Shown here: piece after piece, positions 30,816-40,985 of the stretch
How the letters are laid out: every line of letters starts with the position of its first letter
Position numbering within the stretch: position 1 is the first letter of the stretch
Assembly: GCA_002261195.1 (NCBI GenBank)
Contig: MVBO01000006.1
Span: forward strand, 2,878-66,877
DNA length: 64,000 nucleotides
Reading direction: 5' to 3'
DNA from: Bifiguratus adelaidae
Lineage: Eukaryota > Mucoromycota > Endogonomycetes > Endogonales
The notes under the pieces: model-generated
Seen by the model: only the letters and a program-made list of their open reading frames with translations
What the model was told of the DNA's origin: nothing
Databases searched by the model: none
Position numbers and translations under genes: made by a program

Positions 30816-31383
30816 TGCTAAGCTTGGGACTTTGGGGTCGACTAGGAGAGGTGCCAGGTGTTGCAGGCTGATTGCGGCTGGGGCTGTAAGACTAAGAAAG
30901 ACCAGAGAGACTAGGAGAGAGCGTTTGTTATGGTGATAATGGACAATCTCAATGTTTCCCTTGTTCTATGCTTAAATACAGTACGTTCTAGGTCTATAAT
31001 CTATGCCTGCGTCTCTGAGATGATGACTGGTGCGGCGATGGTTAGTTCCATCACTGTGCAGAAGTTGTTCCGGCATCAGAGCTGATTGTGTTCGGACTTT
31101 CAGGCGGCCTTCGTTGGTGATGGATAGATAACCTGAGTTGGAATATGGGAACATAAGTCGAATGAGTAAAGTCGAGGTTCGAGACTGCGGCTATTCATGG
31201 GATCTTCCTATAGTGCGGAAGCTGATGATTGCAACTGTATGCAAGAAGAGTTGTAATGTTGCGTGGTCGTAGAGAAAATTGCTTGTAAAACCCGAGACCA
31301 ACTCCGTGAAATCCAGGTCGTCACCCGAAAAGGGAATTTACAGTAGTACGAGTTGCTGCACGAAAGCTTCACATCATTACATG
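30816..31383 (+). repeat. LTR family 1, copy A (interrupted)
   Basis: Begins TGCTAAGCTTGGGACTTTGG and keeps CTAGGAGAGGTGCCAGGTGT like copy C. After about 30925 it is interrupted by unrelated sequence to about 31110. From about 31113 it matches the reverse complement of 33684-33950 closely, including GTGGTCGTAGAGAAA and TACGAGTTGCTGCACGAAAG. It forms the left arm of a 250-270 bp inverted repeat. Confidence 0.75.
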
Positions 31384-31513
31384 TATTCTGGCTACCTTGT
31401 TGATCATAATGTATTTGATCGTAGCGGCTGGCGACTAGGCTTACTTCTTTGAACGTGTTGACACCGGCTTCTTCTACCTCCATGTGTGTAGCGAGTTTAA
31501 GCTATAAAGATGT

Positions 31514-32208
31514 TCATAACAAGCGTCCGTAGCAGAAACCGTGAAACCAAGGAGTAGTAAAAGACTTTCCGAAGCGATTTGTGCAGTCCATGACTTTTCC
31601 TGTCTTCCGCAGGCTCACATATTGATCTCGGATTTCCCGCTCAGAATTGACGGGTTTGAATTCGGAGGTCAACGACGCGGCTAAAGGCCTCCCTAGTGAC
31701 TTATTCGCCTTGGAGTGTTGAGCATCCATAATTTCTCCACCAGAGTCTAGCTTCTCCGTGTAGTCTCGTGATGGCAACTGGCAATGTGGAGGCTGAATCC
31801 AAACCATTGAAATCGGCGAAGTCCTCGACCTGGTAGAGCCAACTCTCAAGCTTGGCGGCATCCCGCTCGCCACTGTGCTCCAGTGGTTTCTCCATCTTCA
31901 GCCCACCACTGATGGGGCTTGCAAGGGTCATATCTTGCGAGCTTAATAACGGATAGGCTTGGTATCCTGCGGATGCGGCAGTGGCTTGCTGCAGCTCTAT
32001 GACCTGGCGGCTAGGCTGCGGATAGTCTCTTCGGCAGACGGATTGACTGGCTTTTGATGCTTGGACTTCGATGTTCCGGGGCTTGTGAATGGTGTCGAAC
32101 TTTCATTCGAACTGTCCGCGGCCATGGTGTCGCGGGCGATACGATACATTTCGGCGTGCCGCTACAGAACAAAATGCTACGAGGCAGTATCCAGGCAATA
32201 CAGTACAA
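31514..32208 (-). pseudogene. gag relic of a Ty3/gypsy retrotransposon, inverted
   Basis: Minus-strand frames show a retrotransposon gag capsid segment: an ESWLYQVEDFADFNGL block, then ARLWWRNY. In a shifted frame the EFKPVNSEREIRDQY block follows with a VMDCTNRF end. The reading is broken by frame shifts near 32005 and 31745. It reads away from the LTR at 32266-32382, as expected for a 5' LTR plus gag. It is opposite to the pol relic at 34090-37184 that appears to belong to the same element. Capsid and zinc-knuckle end are incomplete. Not expected to be functional. Confidence 0.8.
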
Positions 32209-32265
32209 GTAGTTCTAGGCGTTAACTAAGGCAACAGGTCGGTGGATGGCTCCTGACGCTAACAC

Positions 32266-32382
32266 TGTAAGGGTGGGGAGCAGTTGCTACTGTAAGAAAG
32301 AGGAAACTTTGTTTATTGATCAAAGACGAAGTTTATAAGCGCCCTACGATTAGGTTGCAGAGAATTGGGTAGGCGTGTAACA
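32266..32382 (-). repeat. LTR family 2, 5' LTR of the gypsy relic (inverted)
   Basis: 117-bp repeat which on the minus strand starts TGTTACACGCCTACCCAATT and ends CCTTACA (TG..CA). It is closely similar to 37185-37299 on the plus strand; both share TTGATCAATAAACAAAGTT and GCAACTGCTCCCCA. The 5 bases outside its TG end read GTAGT, the same as outside the right LTR. Confidence 0.88.
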
Positions 32383-33070
32383 ACTACAGTAACCTTACTC
32401 TACAGTAAATCTGTGGATTACTGTCCTTGGTCTTACCGAATTCTCTATTATTCACTGACAGTATTGTACTGTAGCTTACTGTACATCCAGGATGGTACCG
32501 TATACTGTACTACAGTACATCTTTATTACTGTACAGTATATGCTGAACTACTGTACTTTTCTCCACCGCAAGAAAAGTACAGTAAGTACAGGACCATCTA
32601 CAGTACAGTACAGTACGATACCAATTGTTTGTACAGTATACAGTACTTACAGTAACTTTGTGTAGTTCGTCATGTATATACTGTACTGTACTACTGTACT
32701 GTACCTCTATGGTGTATTGCGGCACCGTGATTACAGTACACTGCTGTACTGTACACTACAGTTTTGGACTTTACAAGATTATACAGTATGCAGTCCATCC
32801 GCGGATGCAGTTTTGTGACATGGTGCTTCAGACGATGAAAATCAGCATTATCGAGTGTCTACTTGTGTTTTTGTGGTCCTCTGGTACTGTATACTGTACT
32901 TAAAGTCATCTCAATGAACATGGAGTGTTGTACAAGGCTACAGTTACAGTATTCGAGCATATAGCAATTCGATTGCTGCACAGTTAGATGGAACGCGATG
33001 GAATGGAGGCGGCGTGGTGGGCAATTGTGTTAACCACCAATGACCCACCCAATTTTGATATACTGTAGAG
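32383..33070. repeat. TACTGTA/TACAGTA motif cluster, left part
   Basis: Between about 32440 and 32800 at least 20 copies of the 7-mer TACTGTA or its reverse complement TACAGTA occur, several overlapping (TACTGTACTGTAC, ACAGTACAGTACAGTAC). TACTGTACAGTA, a perfect 12-nt palindrome, is at 32527-32538. There is no fixed unit length, so it is a dispersed-motif domain rather than a simple tandem satellite. It directly abuts the LTR at 32382. Confidence 0.85.
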
Positions 33071-33683
33071 TATAATTAAGCCGATACATTAGTCTTTCGT
33101 AGGAACGTTCGGAGCTACATTGTATTCGATCTGTATCAACATTGAATAATCTGGCCTGCCCGAAATTTACAGCATATTGTTCTCTTAATATCATCGCGTA
33201 TACTACCGTTCGAGGGTGGACTTTGCGCTCTTCGCACCCGACAGAAACACATACTCATGATTTGACATGCTGTACACATAGGCCCAACCCTCGTTCCAAG
33301 CTCTATCTGTCAAGTTATGTCTCGTACGCTGAAGTGGAACTTTACTCGATTGATTGCGAATCGTATGAGCCAGCTCTGCTTTACCGTAGACAGCTCCGAG
33401 TGTGCGGACGTGAAACCTCTTACAGATCTGAAATGCGAACACAAGACGCCTTTCACCAATGTCTAGCGTCATTATTGAGTCTCAGTTCCTGCACCAATCG
33501 GTATCCTACGGCTGCTTCACAAGATTTCACCTTTGCGCAACTTCTGCATGTATATACTGTAATGTTAGAGTTTAGAATCGTGTGATTTGTCTGCAATCAG
33601 CGTAGCAACCACCATATTAGCCTGCTCAAGTCTTTCCGGTCTAGGCCCCTGGTTTCCCCAATGATACCTTGCAATTGTGATAG

Positions 33684-34065
33684 TATAATGACACGAAGCT
33701 TTCGTACAGCAACTCGTACTACTGTAAATTCCCTTTTCGGGTGACGACCTGGATTTCACGGAGTTGGTCTCGGGTTTTACAAGCAATTTTCTCTACGACC
33801 ACGCAACATTACAACTCTTCTTGCATACAGTTGCAATCATCAGCTTCCGCACTATAGGAAGATCCCATGAATAGCCGCAGTCTCGAACCTCGACTTTACT
33901 CATTACTTATGTTCCCATATTCCAAGTCCAGGTCACCAATCACCAACATAGCAACCAATTTTCTTAGTTTCTTCTGGCCTATTCCCCTAGCTTCGTAGTC
34001 CCGTCTATGTCCCGCCCACAACGCCTGGCACCTCACCTAGTCGACGCCAAACTCCCAGCGTAACA
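33684..34065 (-). repeat. LTR family 1, copy B (longest copy)
   Basis: On the minus strand starts TGTTACGCTGGGAGTTTGGC, followed by TAGGTGAGGTGCCAGGCGTT and GGCCAGAAGAAACTAAG. It continues through the segment shared with copy A to GTACGAAAGCTTCGTGTCAT. At about 380 bp it is the most complete of three copies. It lies between the inverted gag block and the pol relic and supplies the right arm of the inverted repeat. Confidence 0.78.
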
Positions 34066-34089
34066 AAGGAACAGTGCCTCAAGCGCGAT

Positions 34090-37000
34090 CATCCTATTAG
34101 GCGTCACCGAAGGACCTTGGGTGCTGCAAGAGGAGATCGAAATTGATTTGCAAAAAGATGGATACGATCCAATGCATTGCGCTGAGCCGCTCCAGTGCTC
34201 TTTGTAAAGAAAACAGAGGGCACTCTGCGGTTGGGCCATGATTATGCTCAACAAGCACACGATAAAAACATGGTACCGTCTACCCTTGGTGCGGCAACTG
34301 CTGGAAGTGGTCAAAGTTGCCATGAGACCCTCAAAATTTGGCCTACAGTACATCCTGGGTACAACCGACTTCGCGTTAAGGAAGACGAGATCCCGAAAAC
34401 GGCCTTCACGATGAGGTATGGGTTATATGAGTATTTAGTCAATGCCATGCGGCTTGGTGCTCCCGCAACGTTTCAAGCACTACGCAATCAACTGTTTCGG
34501 CCTTAACTTGTTTAAGTTTATAGTCATACTGTATATATCGACGATATTCTAGTATTCTCGCGCGGCAAAGACGAGCAGATGGAGCATTTGGGTACAGTCC
34601 TTCACGTTCTGCCAAAGGAGAGGCTGTACGTTAAACGGAGTAAAAGGCAAGTTTCTACAATATGGCGTATCCTATCTGGGCCCTGTCATCGCGGAATGAA
34701 AGGGTGAAGGTAGACGAGAGGAAAACCAAAGCTATCAAGGAGTGGCTGATGCCGGGCAATGTCTCATGAGATCCGATCCTTCCTAGGACTTGCAGAATAT
34801 TACAGACGATTTATCTGGAATTACGCGCAAATTGCTTGCAGCACCGCTTACCAATATGACTCGGCAACGCGTACCGTATCAATTATCTCGCGAATGCGAG
34901 GTGGCTGTCGAGGCGCTCAAATGCGCCATCTGTTAAACCTCCTGTTTGCCGATACTATGAAATCATTTGTGCTTGTGGGGGATTCATCGGGCTTCGCTAC
35001 TGGAGCTGCGCTGATGCAAGATTCGGAAAAGGCTTACAACCCGCCGCTTTTCATTTGCACAAGTTAACGGACGCTGAGACCTTATTCACGAAAAAGATCT
35101 GTTAGCAATAGTTCTGGCTTTGCAGGAAAGGCAATGTCACCTCCACGGCAGCCAGACGACAATATATACTGAACATAAGTCGATTATTCAGCTTCCGACC
35201 CAGTCGACTGTCAGCAACCGCCAAACCCGCGGGCAGGAGAAGCTTGCAGTATATGAGGATGATATTGTATCCCAGCCAGGCAAACTCAATGTCGTCGCAG
35301 ATGCAATATTCAGAGCGCCCTGATAGAGAGCCTCCAAAGGCGCCAACACCGCAACCTCGAGAATTTATCTGTGGCGAACGTGTCAATGTCCACCATTAGC
35401 AAACCTAGGGACGAAGATATTAGCATCAATCGCCGACGACGATCATCTCGGTATGAGTGGTTCGACCTTGCGGAGGGAGATAAAAGCGAAGAAGGGTACG
35501 TTACATCTCAAGGCCATACTGAAAGGTGGACATATGTATGTCCCGAGTGTCGTATCGACATACTGTATAGATGGTAGCTAAGAGCGACTATGTTATTCAC
35601 ATATATATAAGGGCGCAGCAAAAGACAACGTATGAGACTAAAGTGATTTTACTTGTGACTACAAATCATATATACATGAACTAGACAAAGAGAGTTAACA
35701 ATCTCTCACTTAGCGCAACTAGGAGCGTGGAGCGTAGCTCCCGCACCGATAAGCGCAATAACACCACTACATTGTAGTATAGCGTATTTACGTTAGATGA
35801 GACTTGAAGTTCATGTATATAAGTCATCAGAAGCATCTAGAATGGATAATCCAGTCTCACTCAGCTTTAGTGCCTTACAATGCGGAAAAAATTGTCAGAG
35901 AAATTCGTGAATGGATGCGTACAATGCCAACACGACAAAGGATGAAAACTCACCCCGCAGGTCTTTTGCAACCTTTGCCAATACCGACAACGACCTGAAC
36001 GACAAAGCCATGCTTTAGCTACTCAGGCTACCGAAGACGAAGGAGGTATCACGCTATATTGGTTATTGACAGACTCAGTACAATGGCGCACTTTATACCG
36101 ACGAAAACGACAGTCTTTGCGGCAGAGACAGCAACGCATTTTCTGAATAACATGTTTCGATATCACGGGCTGCCGGTGACCATAGACAGCAATGAAGATC
36201 CACGCTTTACGTGCATATTCTAGAGAAACCTCACCAAAGCTCTTGTGACTGCCTCTAGCGATGAGCACGGCATTTCATACGCAGAGAGACGGTCTGACTG
36301 AACGAACCAACAGAACCCTCTAGCAAATGCTACCGACATACGTACGTCGCCCCCTCACCGAAAGGACTGGGAAGACTTCCTGCCCCATGTGGACGTCGCG
36401 TTTAACTCATCGAAGCAGGTGTCTACCGGTAAGTCGCCTTTCGAGCTGATGACCGAACAACAACCTCTGCTACCGAGCGCACCAGATTTGCAAGAGCTGG
36501 GAAAGTATTCCGGCAACCAAGGACATCCTTGAACGAGTGCGAGCAAACGTTGAAGAAGCAACGTAAGCCGTTGTTGAGAAGGCACAAGTGAGGGAAAAGC
36601 AGTAGGCCGACCAAAATCGCAGGGAAGAAATTCATGAAGTTGGCGATTTGGTGCTCCTCGCTACTACAAATCTCAAGCTCCACAAACAATTGACGCGCAC
36701 AAGTAACTCGCTAGCACCTCGCTCCATCGGCCCTTACGAGATGAAGAAGGCCATTTCACCTACAGCCTACCAGTAACAGCTACTTGCAGATATGCAGATC
36801 CCTTTTTTAAGGTCTCATTGTTCGGGCGCTACGTTACGAACGACTAATACCAGGGTGCCGTCCGCCCGCCTGCAGACATCGTGGTCGAAGGTCAGGAGGA
36901 ACTCGAAATACTGTATGAAATCGAGGAGATCTTTGGGCGCAGAGTCAAGAAGAGACGACGCAAGCGCCCCACACAGTATCTTGTTAAATGTAAAGGTTAC

Positions 37001-37184
37001 GGCATTGAACACAATATCTGGATGAACGTGGAAAACCTACAGTACCTCATGCGGAAGACGCTATTCGAGAATCTCTCAACGAGACAAACAAGGAACAGCA
37101 CGACACGGAGGATCTTAATACGAGTTGCCGATGGCGACCAACGGTTACGGAGAACATTATCCTTTGGAGGGGGGATGATTATAC
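34090..37184 (+). pseudogene. pol relic of a chromodomain Ty3/gypsy element (RT, RNase H, integrase, chromodomain)
   Basis: Plus-strand frames, broken by many stops and shifts, show these parts in order. Reverse transcriptase comes first (PVLFVKK-like entry at 34195, KTAFTMRYGLYEYLV near 34390, the YIDDILVFS catalytic block near 34533). RT/RNase H connection FLGLAEYYRRFI lies near 34771, and RNase H follows (35090-35320). The integrase zinc-binding and core parts (HFIPTKTT near 36087, FHTQRDGLTERTNRTL near 36270) come next. A chromodomain is at 36881-37060 (YLVKCKGYGIEHNIW). Order RT-RH-IN-chromodomain is that of fungal chromoviruses, whose chromodomain steers insertion to heterochromatin. 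It is a dead copy. Confidence 0.88.
37166..37178 (+). other. polypurine tract of the gypsy relic
   Basis: Purine run GGAGGGGGGATGA ends 6 bases before the TG of the right LTR, the expected site for plus-strand priming of an LTR retroelement. Confidence 0.65.
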
Positions 37185-37299
37185 TGGAACACGCCTACCC
37201 AATTTCTTCCTGTAACCCAATCCTAGGGAGCTTATAAACGTCGTCTTTGATCAATAAACAAAGTTACCTCTCTCTTAGCAACTGCTCCCCAGCATTACA
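37185..37299 (+). repeat. LTR family 2, 3' LTR of the gypsy relic
   Basis: 115 bp from TGGAACACGCCTACCCAATT to CAGCATTACA, closely similar to the minus strand of 32266-32382. The next five bases (37300-37304) are GTAGT, matching the sequence outside the left LTR. Confidence 0.88.
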
Positions 37300-40240
37300 G
37301 TAGTCTGGTTTACATATACAATTTACTGTATTTTCCATGCAGGTCAGACAGAATCCGAATGTTTCTATAATACAGTAGACTCCAAAATTTTGATTAGATA
37401 TAGGAACCTTGTTTAGTTATCTGCCAGCAACCTCGAGGCGTCACAAAATCTAATACGAATTTGCATGTCACGTATATTGACCCATCTACTGCTTCCGCGT
37501 GCTACTGTACCTGGGGCTTGCGCATACAGTACAACCCATCCCGTCGGGCTTTCCCTGAGACCGGCTGCCGGGAAAGGGCCTTGCGTGTACTTGCAGGATA
37601 CTGTTCCTTTCCTAGTGTCGCCTCTAGCATCAATGACAAGTTCATTCTCTTACGCTAATAATTTAATTGACAGTGATGATGGACGTGATGAAGTATTCGT
37701 GCTTGCTGTACGGTACAGTACAGTATATCCGGTTGTATAGAATACAGTATATGAAGCCATTATCTTGCAGTATCTTCAGATCTGTATTTACTCTTTCATT
37801 AAGTTACTGTACAGTATATTCATGCTTTAAGAACGCAGTGTGGTTAAATACAACAACCGAAACAAACTTCCGCCACACAGTACAGTACTGTAATTGCAGG
37901 AAGCTTGCTGAGTCATAAAATCACCGTACTGTATATGTCATTGAACTTCTCGTTAATTGTACAAACAGCTACTACTTTTCCTATTGTACAGTAACGTACA
38001 GTATACTGTACGTAGGGTTTGTGTTCCTAATATTCACCGTCTACAGTACTACTGTAACGTACTATGCAATACTGTAAGTCTTCAGCTTAATGGTTGCTTT
38101 CCTGTAAATCCAGAATAACGAAGGTTATTCTAATGGTTAGTATACTGTACAGCAGCCAATCCATCTGCTGTATTGTACTGTACTCCATTTTTGACTTTCA
38201 ATTACAGTACCTACACTATGTAAGGGCAGCCGGTACAATGTACAGTAGAGTGCTGTATCCTTGGCAATGACGAATGGAGTATTTTGGACAACCTACAGTA
38301 AGCGATAGAGAACAAAAGGAAAAATAAATTTCTCCAAGAATTGATCTTACAGTGGAAATCACCGTGAACACACACGCACACGAGCTGCATACTGTATTGC
38401 CTTCCAGTACTGAGTGATAAGCGCGCTCCTCGTTCAGTACGGTACCGTACGCCAAATACAGGATACGCACTACTTGTACTGTACAGTTTGTATTGTACCA
38501 CAAGCTCAATAGACTGCGTTGTCATATTCTAAATTTCAAAATGGATGCTCCCAAGCAGGCTCGAACTGCTGACCTTCAGATTATGAGACTGACGCTCTGC
38601 CAACTGAGCTATGGAAGCTGTGTCACGGGACCGTCAGCAGTGCATAATACTGTTAAGGCAATCAATTCCGTATGTTAGGGATGTCAGAACAGGATGCGGT
38701 ACAGTATATACCAAAAAGAAGCTATTTACCGTACAGCGTTTTAACGTAGTATTTTCTACAAGTTTATTTATGTTTATACTGTTGCCCGTTCTAACTGTAC
38801 TGTACCTACATATTCAGTTGGGTCCTCTACTGCATGTTTATGTCTAAGTACAGTACTGTATCCCGCGAATGTATGCAGCAACGGAAAGTAGACGACTGGG
38901 TTAGTGTACAGAATTATCAACCCTCATTTCAACACCGACTAGAAACCATGCCTAGGACCTTCAACTTTCTCCGACACCCTTGCTTGTGAATTTCCCCCAA
39001 ATACAGTATGTCACTGTGGCCAACCATACTGTACTGTATAATATGACCTCCTGTATGGGTTCAATGGCTTAATATACAGTACATCCCAAGGGCTGCCCAC
39101 ATAGGAACGTTACAGTATACTGTATTGTAACGGGATACTGTACATTACTGTACCTTATTAGCACCCGCTGCATGACTATAAAAAATGTACTGATTTTGGT
39201 CTACTGCCCGTACTGTACTGTTGCCTTTGCTACAATACTGTATTTCGCGATACAATATTTTCTTCATATATTTCTGTCAATTTTGTACAGTGGTCGCTTT
39301 GACTTGAGTTCAATGTTTTTACAACAGTATCTTGTATTATCCACGCCTGTACTGCATTTGGCGGAATGCATTACCGTATACAGGAGCAAAGAAAAAGATA
39401 AAATACTGTAGAATTGCTCTCTATTTCACAGCTTACCGTTAGCTTATCGTACTGTATCCTAAGACTTCTGACCAAGCTCAAGCTCTACAGTAAATGGTTA
39501 CGGCTCTCATGTATCCACCTTAACATAGTGTACATTATGATTGCTTTGGTGCGATCCAAAGATACAGGAAATAAGATCAAATAAAGACCGGACTAGCGAA
39601 TCAGACCTTCCAGAGTAATTTAATAAGGGCAAAGAAACACAAGGCTTTTTGGCAACAAAAGGATACAGTAATAAGAAAGGAAGCATATAATATTGCGAAA
39701 TCCAGAAAGAAATGCTGTATACTGACTGTAGATACTGCAATTTTTGACACTGCTGCTCATTTTTACGCAAATCAACTATTTACTGTACGTACAGTACAGT
39801 AAACTACTGTACAGGAGATGAGCTACTGTACCATGGTTGCTCTTGTATAATACCATACAGTATTATGGGCAATGGAACGATTGCTTCGTAAACAAAGTGC
39901 CCATTACGGTACAGTATATAGCACCATCTGAATTACTGTATAGCACAATACAGCATGCCATGGAGTGAGCGCATTACAGTGACTCGAATAACTGTCCAAC
40001 CAATTGGAATTGTCCCTCGAAGGCGAAAATCTCCGAATCAGCTAAACGCAAGGAAGTTGACCTTACTATCCTACTGTAGATAGAATTTCTAAAGGGCTAC
40101 ATGCTCCTGTATTATCAAAAGCAATGCCTGCTGAATAAAGAGCTATCGTTTTGCCGAAATTTCCTATACCCTTGGCAAGTTTTGGATTTTGCCATGCCGA
40201 AAATTTCGAAGTCAACGTACTGTAAGTCGAGATGTAGTCT
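37300..40240. repeat. TACTGTA/TACAGTA motif domain, right part
   Basis: About 3 kb with dozens of TACTGTA/TACAGTA copies in spacer of no coding potential. Examples are TACTGTACAGTA at 37805-37816, the 18-nt perfect palindrome CGTACAGTATACTGTACG at 37995-38012, and a cluster at 39110-39155. The motif is rare in the surrounding genes. Density fades after about 40000. A tRNA-Met lies inside. Confidence 0.85.
38546..38618 (-). tRNA. tRNA-Met (CAT), elongator type
   Basis: Minus-strand 73-mer starts GCTTCCATAGCTCAGTTGGC and ends TGGGAGCA. Acceptor arms GCTTCCA and TGGGAGC pair throughout, with one G-T pair. The anticodon loop CTCATAA carries CAT, and the T loop is TTCGAGC. The sequence is close to eukaryotic elongator tRNA-Met, including GCGTCAGTCTCATAATCTGA. 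No intron. A T run follows the 3' end. It is embedded in the TACTGTA-rich domain. Confidence 0.93.
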
Positions 40241-40745: not shown

Positions 40746-40985
40746 TGTTAGGCTTGGGACTTTGGGAATCTTCTAGGAGAGTTGCCAGGTGTTTCAGGCG
40801 GGAAATAGACCGGACTACGAATCTAGGAACTAGGCCAGAAGAGACTAGGAAAATTTAGTCGCTATGTTGAGTGGTCGTAGAGAAATCGTTTGTAAAGTTC
40901 CCGAAACGCGAAATCGAGGTCGTCGCCTGAACAGGAAATTTAGTTACGAATTGCGGTACGAAAGCTTCATGTCAATACTGTAATA
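40746..40985 (+). repeat. LTR family 1, copy C (internally deleted)
   Basis: Starts TGTTAGGCTTGGGACTTTGG, keeps GAGAGTTGCCAGGTGTTTCA, GGCCAGAAGAGACTAGG and GCTATGTTGAGTGGTCGTAG, and ends near GCGGTACGAAAGCTTCATGT. Compared with copy B about 140 bp are missing between GCTATGTTG and GTGGTCGTAG. No internal coding sequence is attached, so it looks like a solo LTR. Confidence 0.75.

What the first reader, a model, noticed from the sequence alone, without database searches (positions are those of the whole stretch)
31113..37304. Gypsy element split by an inversion, proven by a shared 5-bp target-site duplication
The two LTRs (32266-32382 minus, 37185-37299 plus) are in opposite orientation, which a simple insertion cannot produce. 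Yet the five bases outside both outer TG/CA ends are identical, GTAGT. So they belong to one insertion whose 5' LTR plus gag block was later flipped. That block lies between two inverted copies of another LTR family (31113-31383 and 33684-33950), giving the obvious recombination partners. Read back, the order would be LTR, gag, family-1 LTR, pol, LTR. The coordinates, orientations and duplication are directly visible; the mechanism is inferred.
Basis: partly seen in the sequence, partly recalled or inferred. Interest (0 to 1): 0.75.

Follow-up and report, generated by a model that had tools for sequence, protein, structure and literature searches.

The report
Fungal retrotransposon split by inversion
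A decayed virus-like jumping gene in a soil fungus appears to have been cut in two when a 2.3-kb piece of chromosome flipped between two partly near-identical inverted repeats, a known kind of accident that is unusually legible here but that an assembly error could also mimic.

Summary
LTR1 (32266-32382, minus) and LTR2 (37185-37299, plus) lie in opposite orientation, with GTAGT flush outside each outer end. The organism is Bifiguratus adelaidae, by a 100% protein match.

GTAGT alone is not proof: a chance match is about 0.1-0.3% for random sites, but 3-11% if the family prefers GTA targets. Further evidence supports one insertion:
- The gag block matched nothing else at DNA level. The pol block's 19 other matches are nested or neighbouring LTR sequence, except one weak 171-nt match.
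- Related elements on C167 and C128 have gag and pol collinear on one strand.
- Both outer ends abut the only TACTGTA-dense DNA in the window, as if one island had been split.

The inverted arms are larger than reported (30816-31381, 33684-34065) and share a 198-nt identical run between diverged ends, a conversion-like signature.

Best account: a chromodomain Ty3/gypsy insertion, invaded by another LTR family, losing about 1 kb, then split by recombination between inverted LTRs. Misassembly across the identical run is the main rival. The process is well known, so interest is low.

The parts
32266..32382 (-). Gypsy LTR1, the 5' LTR of the element, inverted relative to LTR2
   Evidence: Alignment with LTR2, 101 of 112 aligned bases identical; one of three places found in the genome (a lower bound by the tool's own note)
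32383..32387 (-). GTAGT (LTR sense) flush outside LTR1: one copy of the target-site duplication
   Evidence: Read directly
31382..32265 (-). 5' internal block of the gypsy element: leader and broken gag, cut off at the family-1 LTR
   Evidence: 31384-32265 matched only itself in the genome; protein pieces match gag on C167, C128, C29 and C209
30816..31381 (-). Left family-1 LTR, 566 nt, TGTAATG...TTAGCA: left inverted arm
33684..34065 (+). Right family-1 LTR, 382 nt, TATAATG...GTAACA, 184 nt shorter than the left copy: right inverted arm
32383..33683 (.). Non-element DNA carried inside the flipped block; its first ~700 nt are TACTGTA-rich, the rest much less so
   Evidence: 31 CTGTA/TACAG motifs in 32383-33082 against a median of 1 per 700 nt; the 250-nt bins starting at 33000, 33250 and 33500 hold 3, 2 and 3
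34066..37184 (+). 3' internal block of the gypsy element: broken RT, RNase H, integrase remnants, chromodomain, polypurine tract (the last by eye)
   Evidence: RVT_1 over its cut-off at 34357-34686 with 2 stops inside (converted from contig coordinates); RT_RNaseH and Chromo over their cut-offs; integrase pieces match C167, C128, C29 and others
35546..35872 (.). Another LTR-like repeat (family 3) nested inside pol; limits approximate, ends not established
   Evidence: 13 of the 19 other matches fall here
37185..37299 (+). Gypsy LTR2, the 3' LTR
37300..37304 (+). GTAGT flush outside LTR2: second copy of the target-site duplication
37305..40000 (.). Right part of the TACTGTA-rich island
   Evidence: 73 CTGTA/TACAG sites, 37 on one strand and 36 on the other
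40746..40979 (-). Third family-1 copy in the window, not part of the flip; outer end approximate

Best explanation
One chromodomain Ty3/gypsy element inserted into a TACTGTA-rich stretch and duplicated GTAGT. Later a second LTR family (family 1) became lodged between its gag and pol, where about 1 kb was lost, and another family-1 LTR lay outside the element in opposite orientation. Homologous recombination between these two inverted LTRs, marked by a tract of about 220 nt of near-identity, flipped 31382-33683. The flip carried the 5' LTR, gag and about 1.3 kb of flanking DNA with it. The coordinates, duplication, opposite strands, lack of a second DNA copy, island and identity tract are shown; the order of events and the crossover are inferred.
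For: GTAGT at both outer ends. LTR1 and LTR2 are closer to each other (90%) than either is to the one other copy found (82%). The gag block matched only itself. Of the pol block's 19 other matches, 13 lie in the nested family-3 repeat, 5 in the first ~119 nt of the query, which is family-1 LTR, and 1 is a 171-nt match at 69% identity (lower bounds by the tool's note). Related elements on C167 and C128 have gag, RT, RNase H and integrase collinear on one strand. CTGTA/TACAG counts per 700 nt outside the two outer ends are 31 and 16, against 3 and 3 inside and a median of 1; 0.1% and 4.7% of all 700-nt windows reach those counts, the island itself included. TACTGTA is about 170-fold enriched in the island. 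The inverted arms share a 198-nt identical run although their ends differ; 0 of 20,000 permutations gave so long a run. The right arm is 96% identical to the left over 258 nt, against 74-80% to the other 15 places.
Against: No strain, read or empty-site evidence was available. The family-1 flanks do not show a clean exchange of duplications: 4 of 10 bases match under exchange and 1 of 10 as assembled, with 2.5 expected by chance. About 1 kb between gag and RT is missing, so the simple reading-back is incomplete. The third LTR copy also lies beside TACTGTA motifs and may carry GTACA duplications, so a GTA or island preference would weaken both the GTAGT and the island arguments. A third contig with both gag and pol matches, C29, has them on one strand but with gag about 4 kb beyond the chromodomain, so it gives no collinear support. 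C128 also gave one weak RT hit out of order. A crossover is not shown; conversion without crossover leaves the same tract.
Confidence: 0.72

Rival explanations
1. Assembly artefact: the cell has the ordinary order, and the assembler flipped the block across the near-identical inverted arms. Gene conversion between the arms is real but no inversion exists.
For: The arms share a 198-nt identical run, longer than many short reads. The genome is in 286 contigs. A flip at such a repeat would give exactly this picture of a perfect duplication plus a reversed block.
Against: Read pairs or 250-300-nt reads would usually cross 198-220 nt (general knowledge). The contig is 339,580 nt long and the window has no N. 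The sequencing method was not found in the passages seen.
Confidence: 0.18
2. Two independent gypsy insertions in opposite orientation, each truncated next to a family-1 LTR; the GTAGT match is chance or reflects a target preference.
For: The third LTR copy also sits near TACTGTA motifs, with a possible GTACA duplication. If both sites begin with GTA, the mean chance of a match is about 11%, and 11 of 322 for GTAGT itself.
Against: It needs two complementary half-elements, each cut exactly at an arm, in a genome where three LTR copies were found and neither half showed a second copy at DNA level. The two LTRs are closer to each other than to the third.
Confidence: 0.07
3. The inverted order arose at or before integration, by self-integration or recombination of the cDNA, rather than by a later chromosomal flip.
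For: Rearranged retroelement cDNAs are known in general (recalled, no call).
Against: The outer end of LTR1 faces 1.3 kb of DNA, TACTGTA-rich at first, lying between the two halves, which a rearranged cDNA does not explain.
Confidence: 0.03

Closest known systems
Inversions by ectopic recombination between transposon copies (Galileo in Drosophila buzzatii, inversion 2z3; PMC2775673, passages seen)
   Same: Two copies of one repeat in opposite orientation bound the inverted segment, and target duplications are used as the evidence.
   Different: There both breakpoint copies show exchanged duplications and both are chimeric, with non-inverted chromosomes for comparison. Here the arms' own duplications are uninformative; the informative duplication belongs to a different element that the flip cut.
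Gene conversion between LTRs (PMC7251063, abstract and passages seen)
   Same: A locally identical tract inside otherwise diverged LTRs.
   Different: Here it lies between two LTR copies in inverted orientation about 2.3 kb apart, and may have come with a crossover.
Chromodomain Ty3/gypsy elements (chromoviruses) of fungi (family features recalled)
   Same: RT, RNase H and integrase followed by a chromodomain, TG...CA LTRs, a purine-rich stretch before the 3' LTR, 5-bp duplication.
   Different: This copy is degraded, lacks the region between gag and RT, and has its 5' part reversed.

Membership tests
Ty3/gypsy chromovirus | pol order RT, RNase H, integrase, then chromodomain | tested here: met
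   RVT_1 33.9 bits over its cut-off with 2 stops inside, though a single stop-free piece stayed under it (27.2 against 29.6); RT_RNaseH and Chromo over cut-off. Integrase was not found by Pfam in pieces 7-9, only by similarity to C167, C128, C29 and others.
Ty3/gypsy chromovirus | Paired LTRs with TG...CA ends and a 5-bp duplication | tested here: met
   the two LTRs are in opposite orientation as assembled.
Ty3/gypsy chromovirus | gag upstream on the same strand as pol | tested here: not met
   gag on minus, pol on plus as assembled. Collinear on one strand on C167 and C128; same strand but not collinear on C29. Read as later rearrangement. PF03732 itself gave 3 matches, none on the window's contig.
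Ty3/gypsy chromovirus | Primer-binding site after the 5' LTR | not tested
   The sequence after LTR1 was only looked at by eye.
Inversion by ectopic recombination between repeats | Homologous repeats in opposite orientation at both breakpoints | tested here: met
Inversion by ectopic recombination between repeats | Exchanged target-site duplications at the two repeats | tested here: inconclusive
   4 of 10 matches under exchange, 1 of 10 as assembled. In five other copies the flanks match at 4, 0, 2, 0 and 2 of 5 bases, so the test has little power. Of the ten copies printed, three (L012, L015, L018) were left out of that count because their hand-set ends were off by a base or two.
Inversion by ectopic recombination between repeats | Non-inverted order in a related chromosome | not testable with these tools
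   states that the genome has no relatives here.

The most novel reading that the evidence does not exclude
The two homogenised arms keep recombining, so the 2.3-kb block exists in both orientations within the species or even within one culture: a small, repeatedly flipping inversion driven by two old LTRs.
Probability: 0.1. Interest if true: 0.35.

Novelty: new member of a known kind. Interest (0 to 1): 0.2.

Why it matters
If real, it is a compact, readable record of nested insertion, loss, conversion and inversion in an early-diverging fungus. The target duplication and the split host island let the flip be read from a single assembly. It also shows how LTR arms could fool an assembler, so such loci are worth checking with long reads. 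It does not change any general understanding.

Tried and rejected
Exchange of duplications at the family-1 arms was tested and is uninformative, because the flanks of most other copies counted do not match either. A flip using the third family-1 copy (40746-40979) was considered by reasoning on the coordinates and rejected: it would not bring the two halves into one element. Searching for a second DNA copy of either half found none. Pfam on gag pieces gave nothing useful and the PF03732 search did not mark the window, so gag rests on similarity to relatives. In the listings of the paper searches no title pointed to this locus; passages of PMC10386755 and PMC8070225 gave no sequencing method for this strain. 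That is not a full literature review.

Full report
Source. The window is contig C240, 2878-66877, of an 18.6-Mb genome in 286 contigs. The protein read from 45760-48324 matches Bifiguratus adelaidae BZG36_00974 at 100%, on a contig of the same length, 339,580 nt. That is a Mucoromycotina fungus of the Endogonales.

Observation. LTR1 lies at 32266-32382 on the minus strand and LTR2 at 37185-37299 on the plus strand; GTAGT flanks both outer ends in LTR sense. The LTRs agree at 101 of 112 aligned bases. Three places with this LTR were found in the genome, the third on C232; the third is 82% identical to either.

How strong is GTAGT? Two random 5-mers agree with probability 0.0011 over the window and 0.0029 in the motif-rich island. 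All pairs of 5-mers within 700 nt of the two ends agree at 0.0031. If the family prefers targets starting with GTA, as the third copy's possible GTACA hints, the mean chance is 0.11, and 11 of 322 for GTAGT itself. So the match is good evidence but not proof.

Independent evidence for one insertion. First, the 882-nt gag block matched only itself. The pol block has 19 further matches besides itself: 13 fall in the nested family-3 repeat, 5 in the first ~119 nt of the query, which are family-1 LTR, and 1 is a 171-nt match at 69% identity on C46. The tool calls such counts lower bounds.

Second, stop-free protein pieces of gag and pol match related elements. Among the loci searched, three contigs other than the window's gave both gag and pol at E up to 0.01. 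On C167 (plus) and C128 (minus) gag, RT, RNase H and integrase follow in order on one strand; C128 also gave one weak RT hit out of order (E 0.003). On C29 both are on one strand, but gag lies about 4 kb beyond the chromodomain, so the two are probably not one element. None of the three has gag and pol on opposite strands, as the window does. Of the four stretches fetched, C206 gave no hit and C46 pol hits only.

Third, a dispersed heptamer, TACTGTA or its complement, marks the host target. CTGTA/TACAG occurs 31 times in the 700 nt outside LTR1 and 16 times in the 700 nt outside LTR2, but 3 and 3 times on the inner sides, with a median of 1; 0.1% and 4.7% of all 700-nt windows reach those counts, the island itself included. 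Removing the element in the flipped-back order joins these two parts into one island. A caution: the third LTR copy is also near such motifs, so preference for islands cannot be excluded.

The arms. One search found 17 places in the genome; the right copy is 96% identical to the left but 74-80% to the other 15. In the left-right alignment (31112-31381 against 33684-33950, 274 columns) the differences crowd at both ends and a run of 198 columns is identical; 0 of 20,000 permutations of 13 difference events gave so long a run. That is the mark of recent exchange between the two inverted arms. The gypsy LTRs are about 10% diverged, so the exchange is younger than the insertion if rates are similar (inference).

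What is missing. On C167, 1,476 nt separate the end of the matched gag piece from the start of the matched RT piece. In the window about 346 nt remain on the gag side and 120 nt on the pol side (counted from the coordinates). So roughly 1 kb was lost at the family-1 insertion. This rests on one relative, since C128 appears deleted there itself.

Mechanism. Insertion, then family-1 LTRs in and near the element, loss of about 1 kb, then recombination between inverted family-1 LTRs with conversion and crossover, flipping 31382-33683. Only the end state and the identity tract are shown. Conversion without crossover plus a misassembly would look the same, and no reads were available. The exchange of duplications at the arms, decisive in the Galileo case (PMC2775673, passages), is uninformative here.

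Novelty. Inversion by recombination between transposon copies and conversion between LTRs are established (PMC2775673, PMC7251063; passages). This is a new example. A search for papers on LTRs in opposite orientation or inversion within an element listed four papers, none of whose titles points to this locus.

Noticed in passing
32383-33082 and 37305-40000: An island dense in the heptamer TACTGTA/TACAGTA, 78 sites in 3.4 kb against 6 in 52 kb of background. TACTGTACTGTACT occurs 21 times in the genome, against 1 for its reversed control, on 13 contigs, 10 of which also gave transposon matches. Its nature is unexplained.
   Followed up: partly
35546-35872: A third LTR-like repeat nested inside pol, between RNase H and integrase, with diverged copies elsewhere.
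   Followed up: partly
L003 / C232:91369-91489: The third gypsy LTR, near a long family-1 copy and a TACTGTA run at the contig end, with a possible GTACA duplication.
   Followed up: partly
L019 / C209:135958-136584: On C209 a family-1 LTR (136148-136373) lies between two gag matches on the plus strand, so family 1 interrupts a related gag there too.
   Followed up: no
38538-38621: An 84-nt stretch of the island's right part is 99% identical to C198:143623-143706.
   Followed up: no
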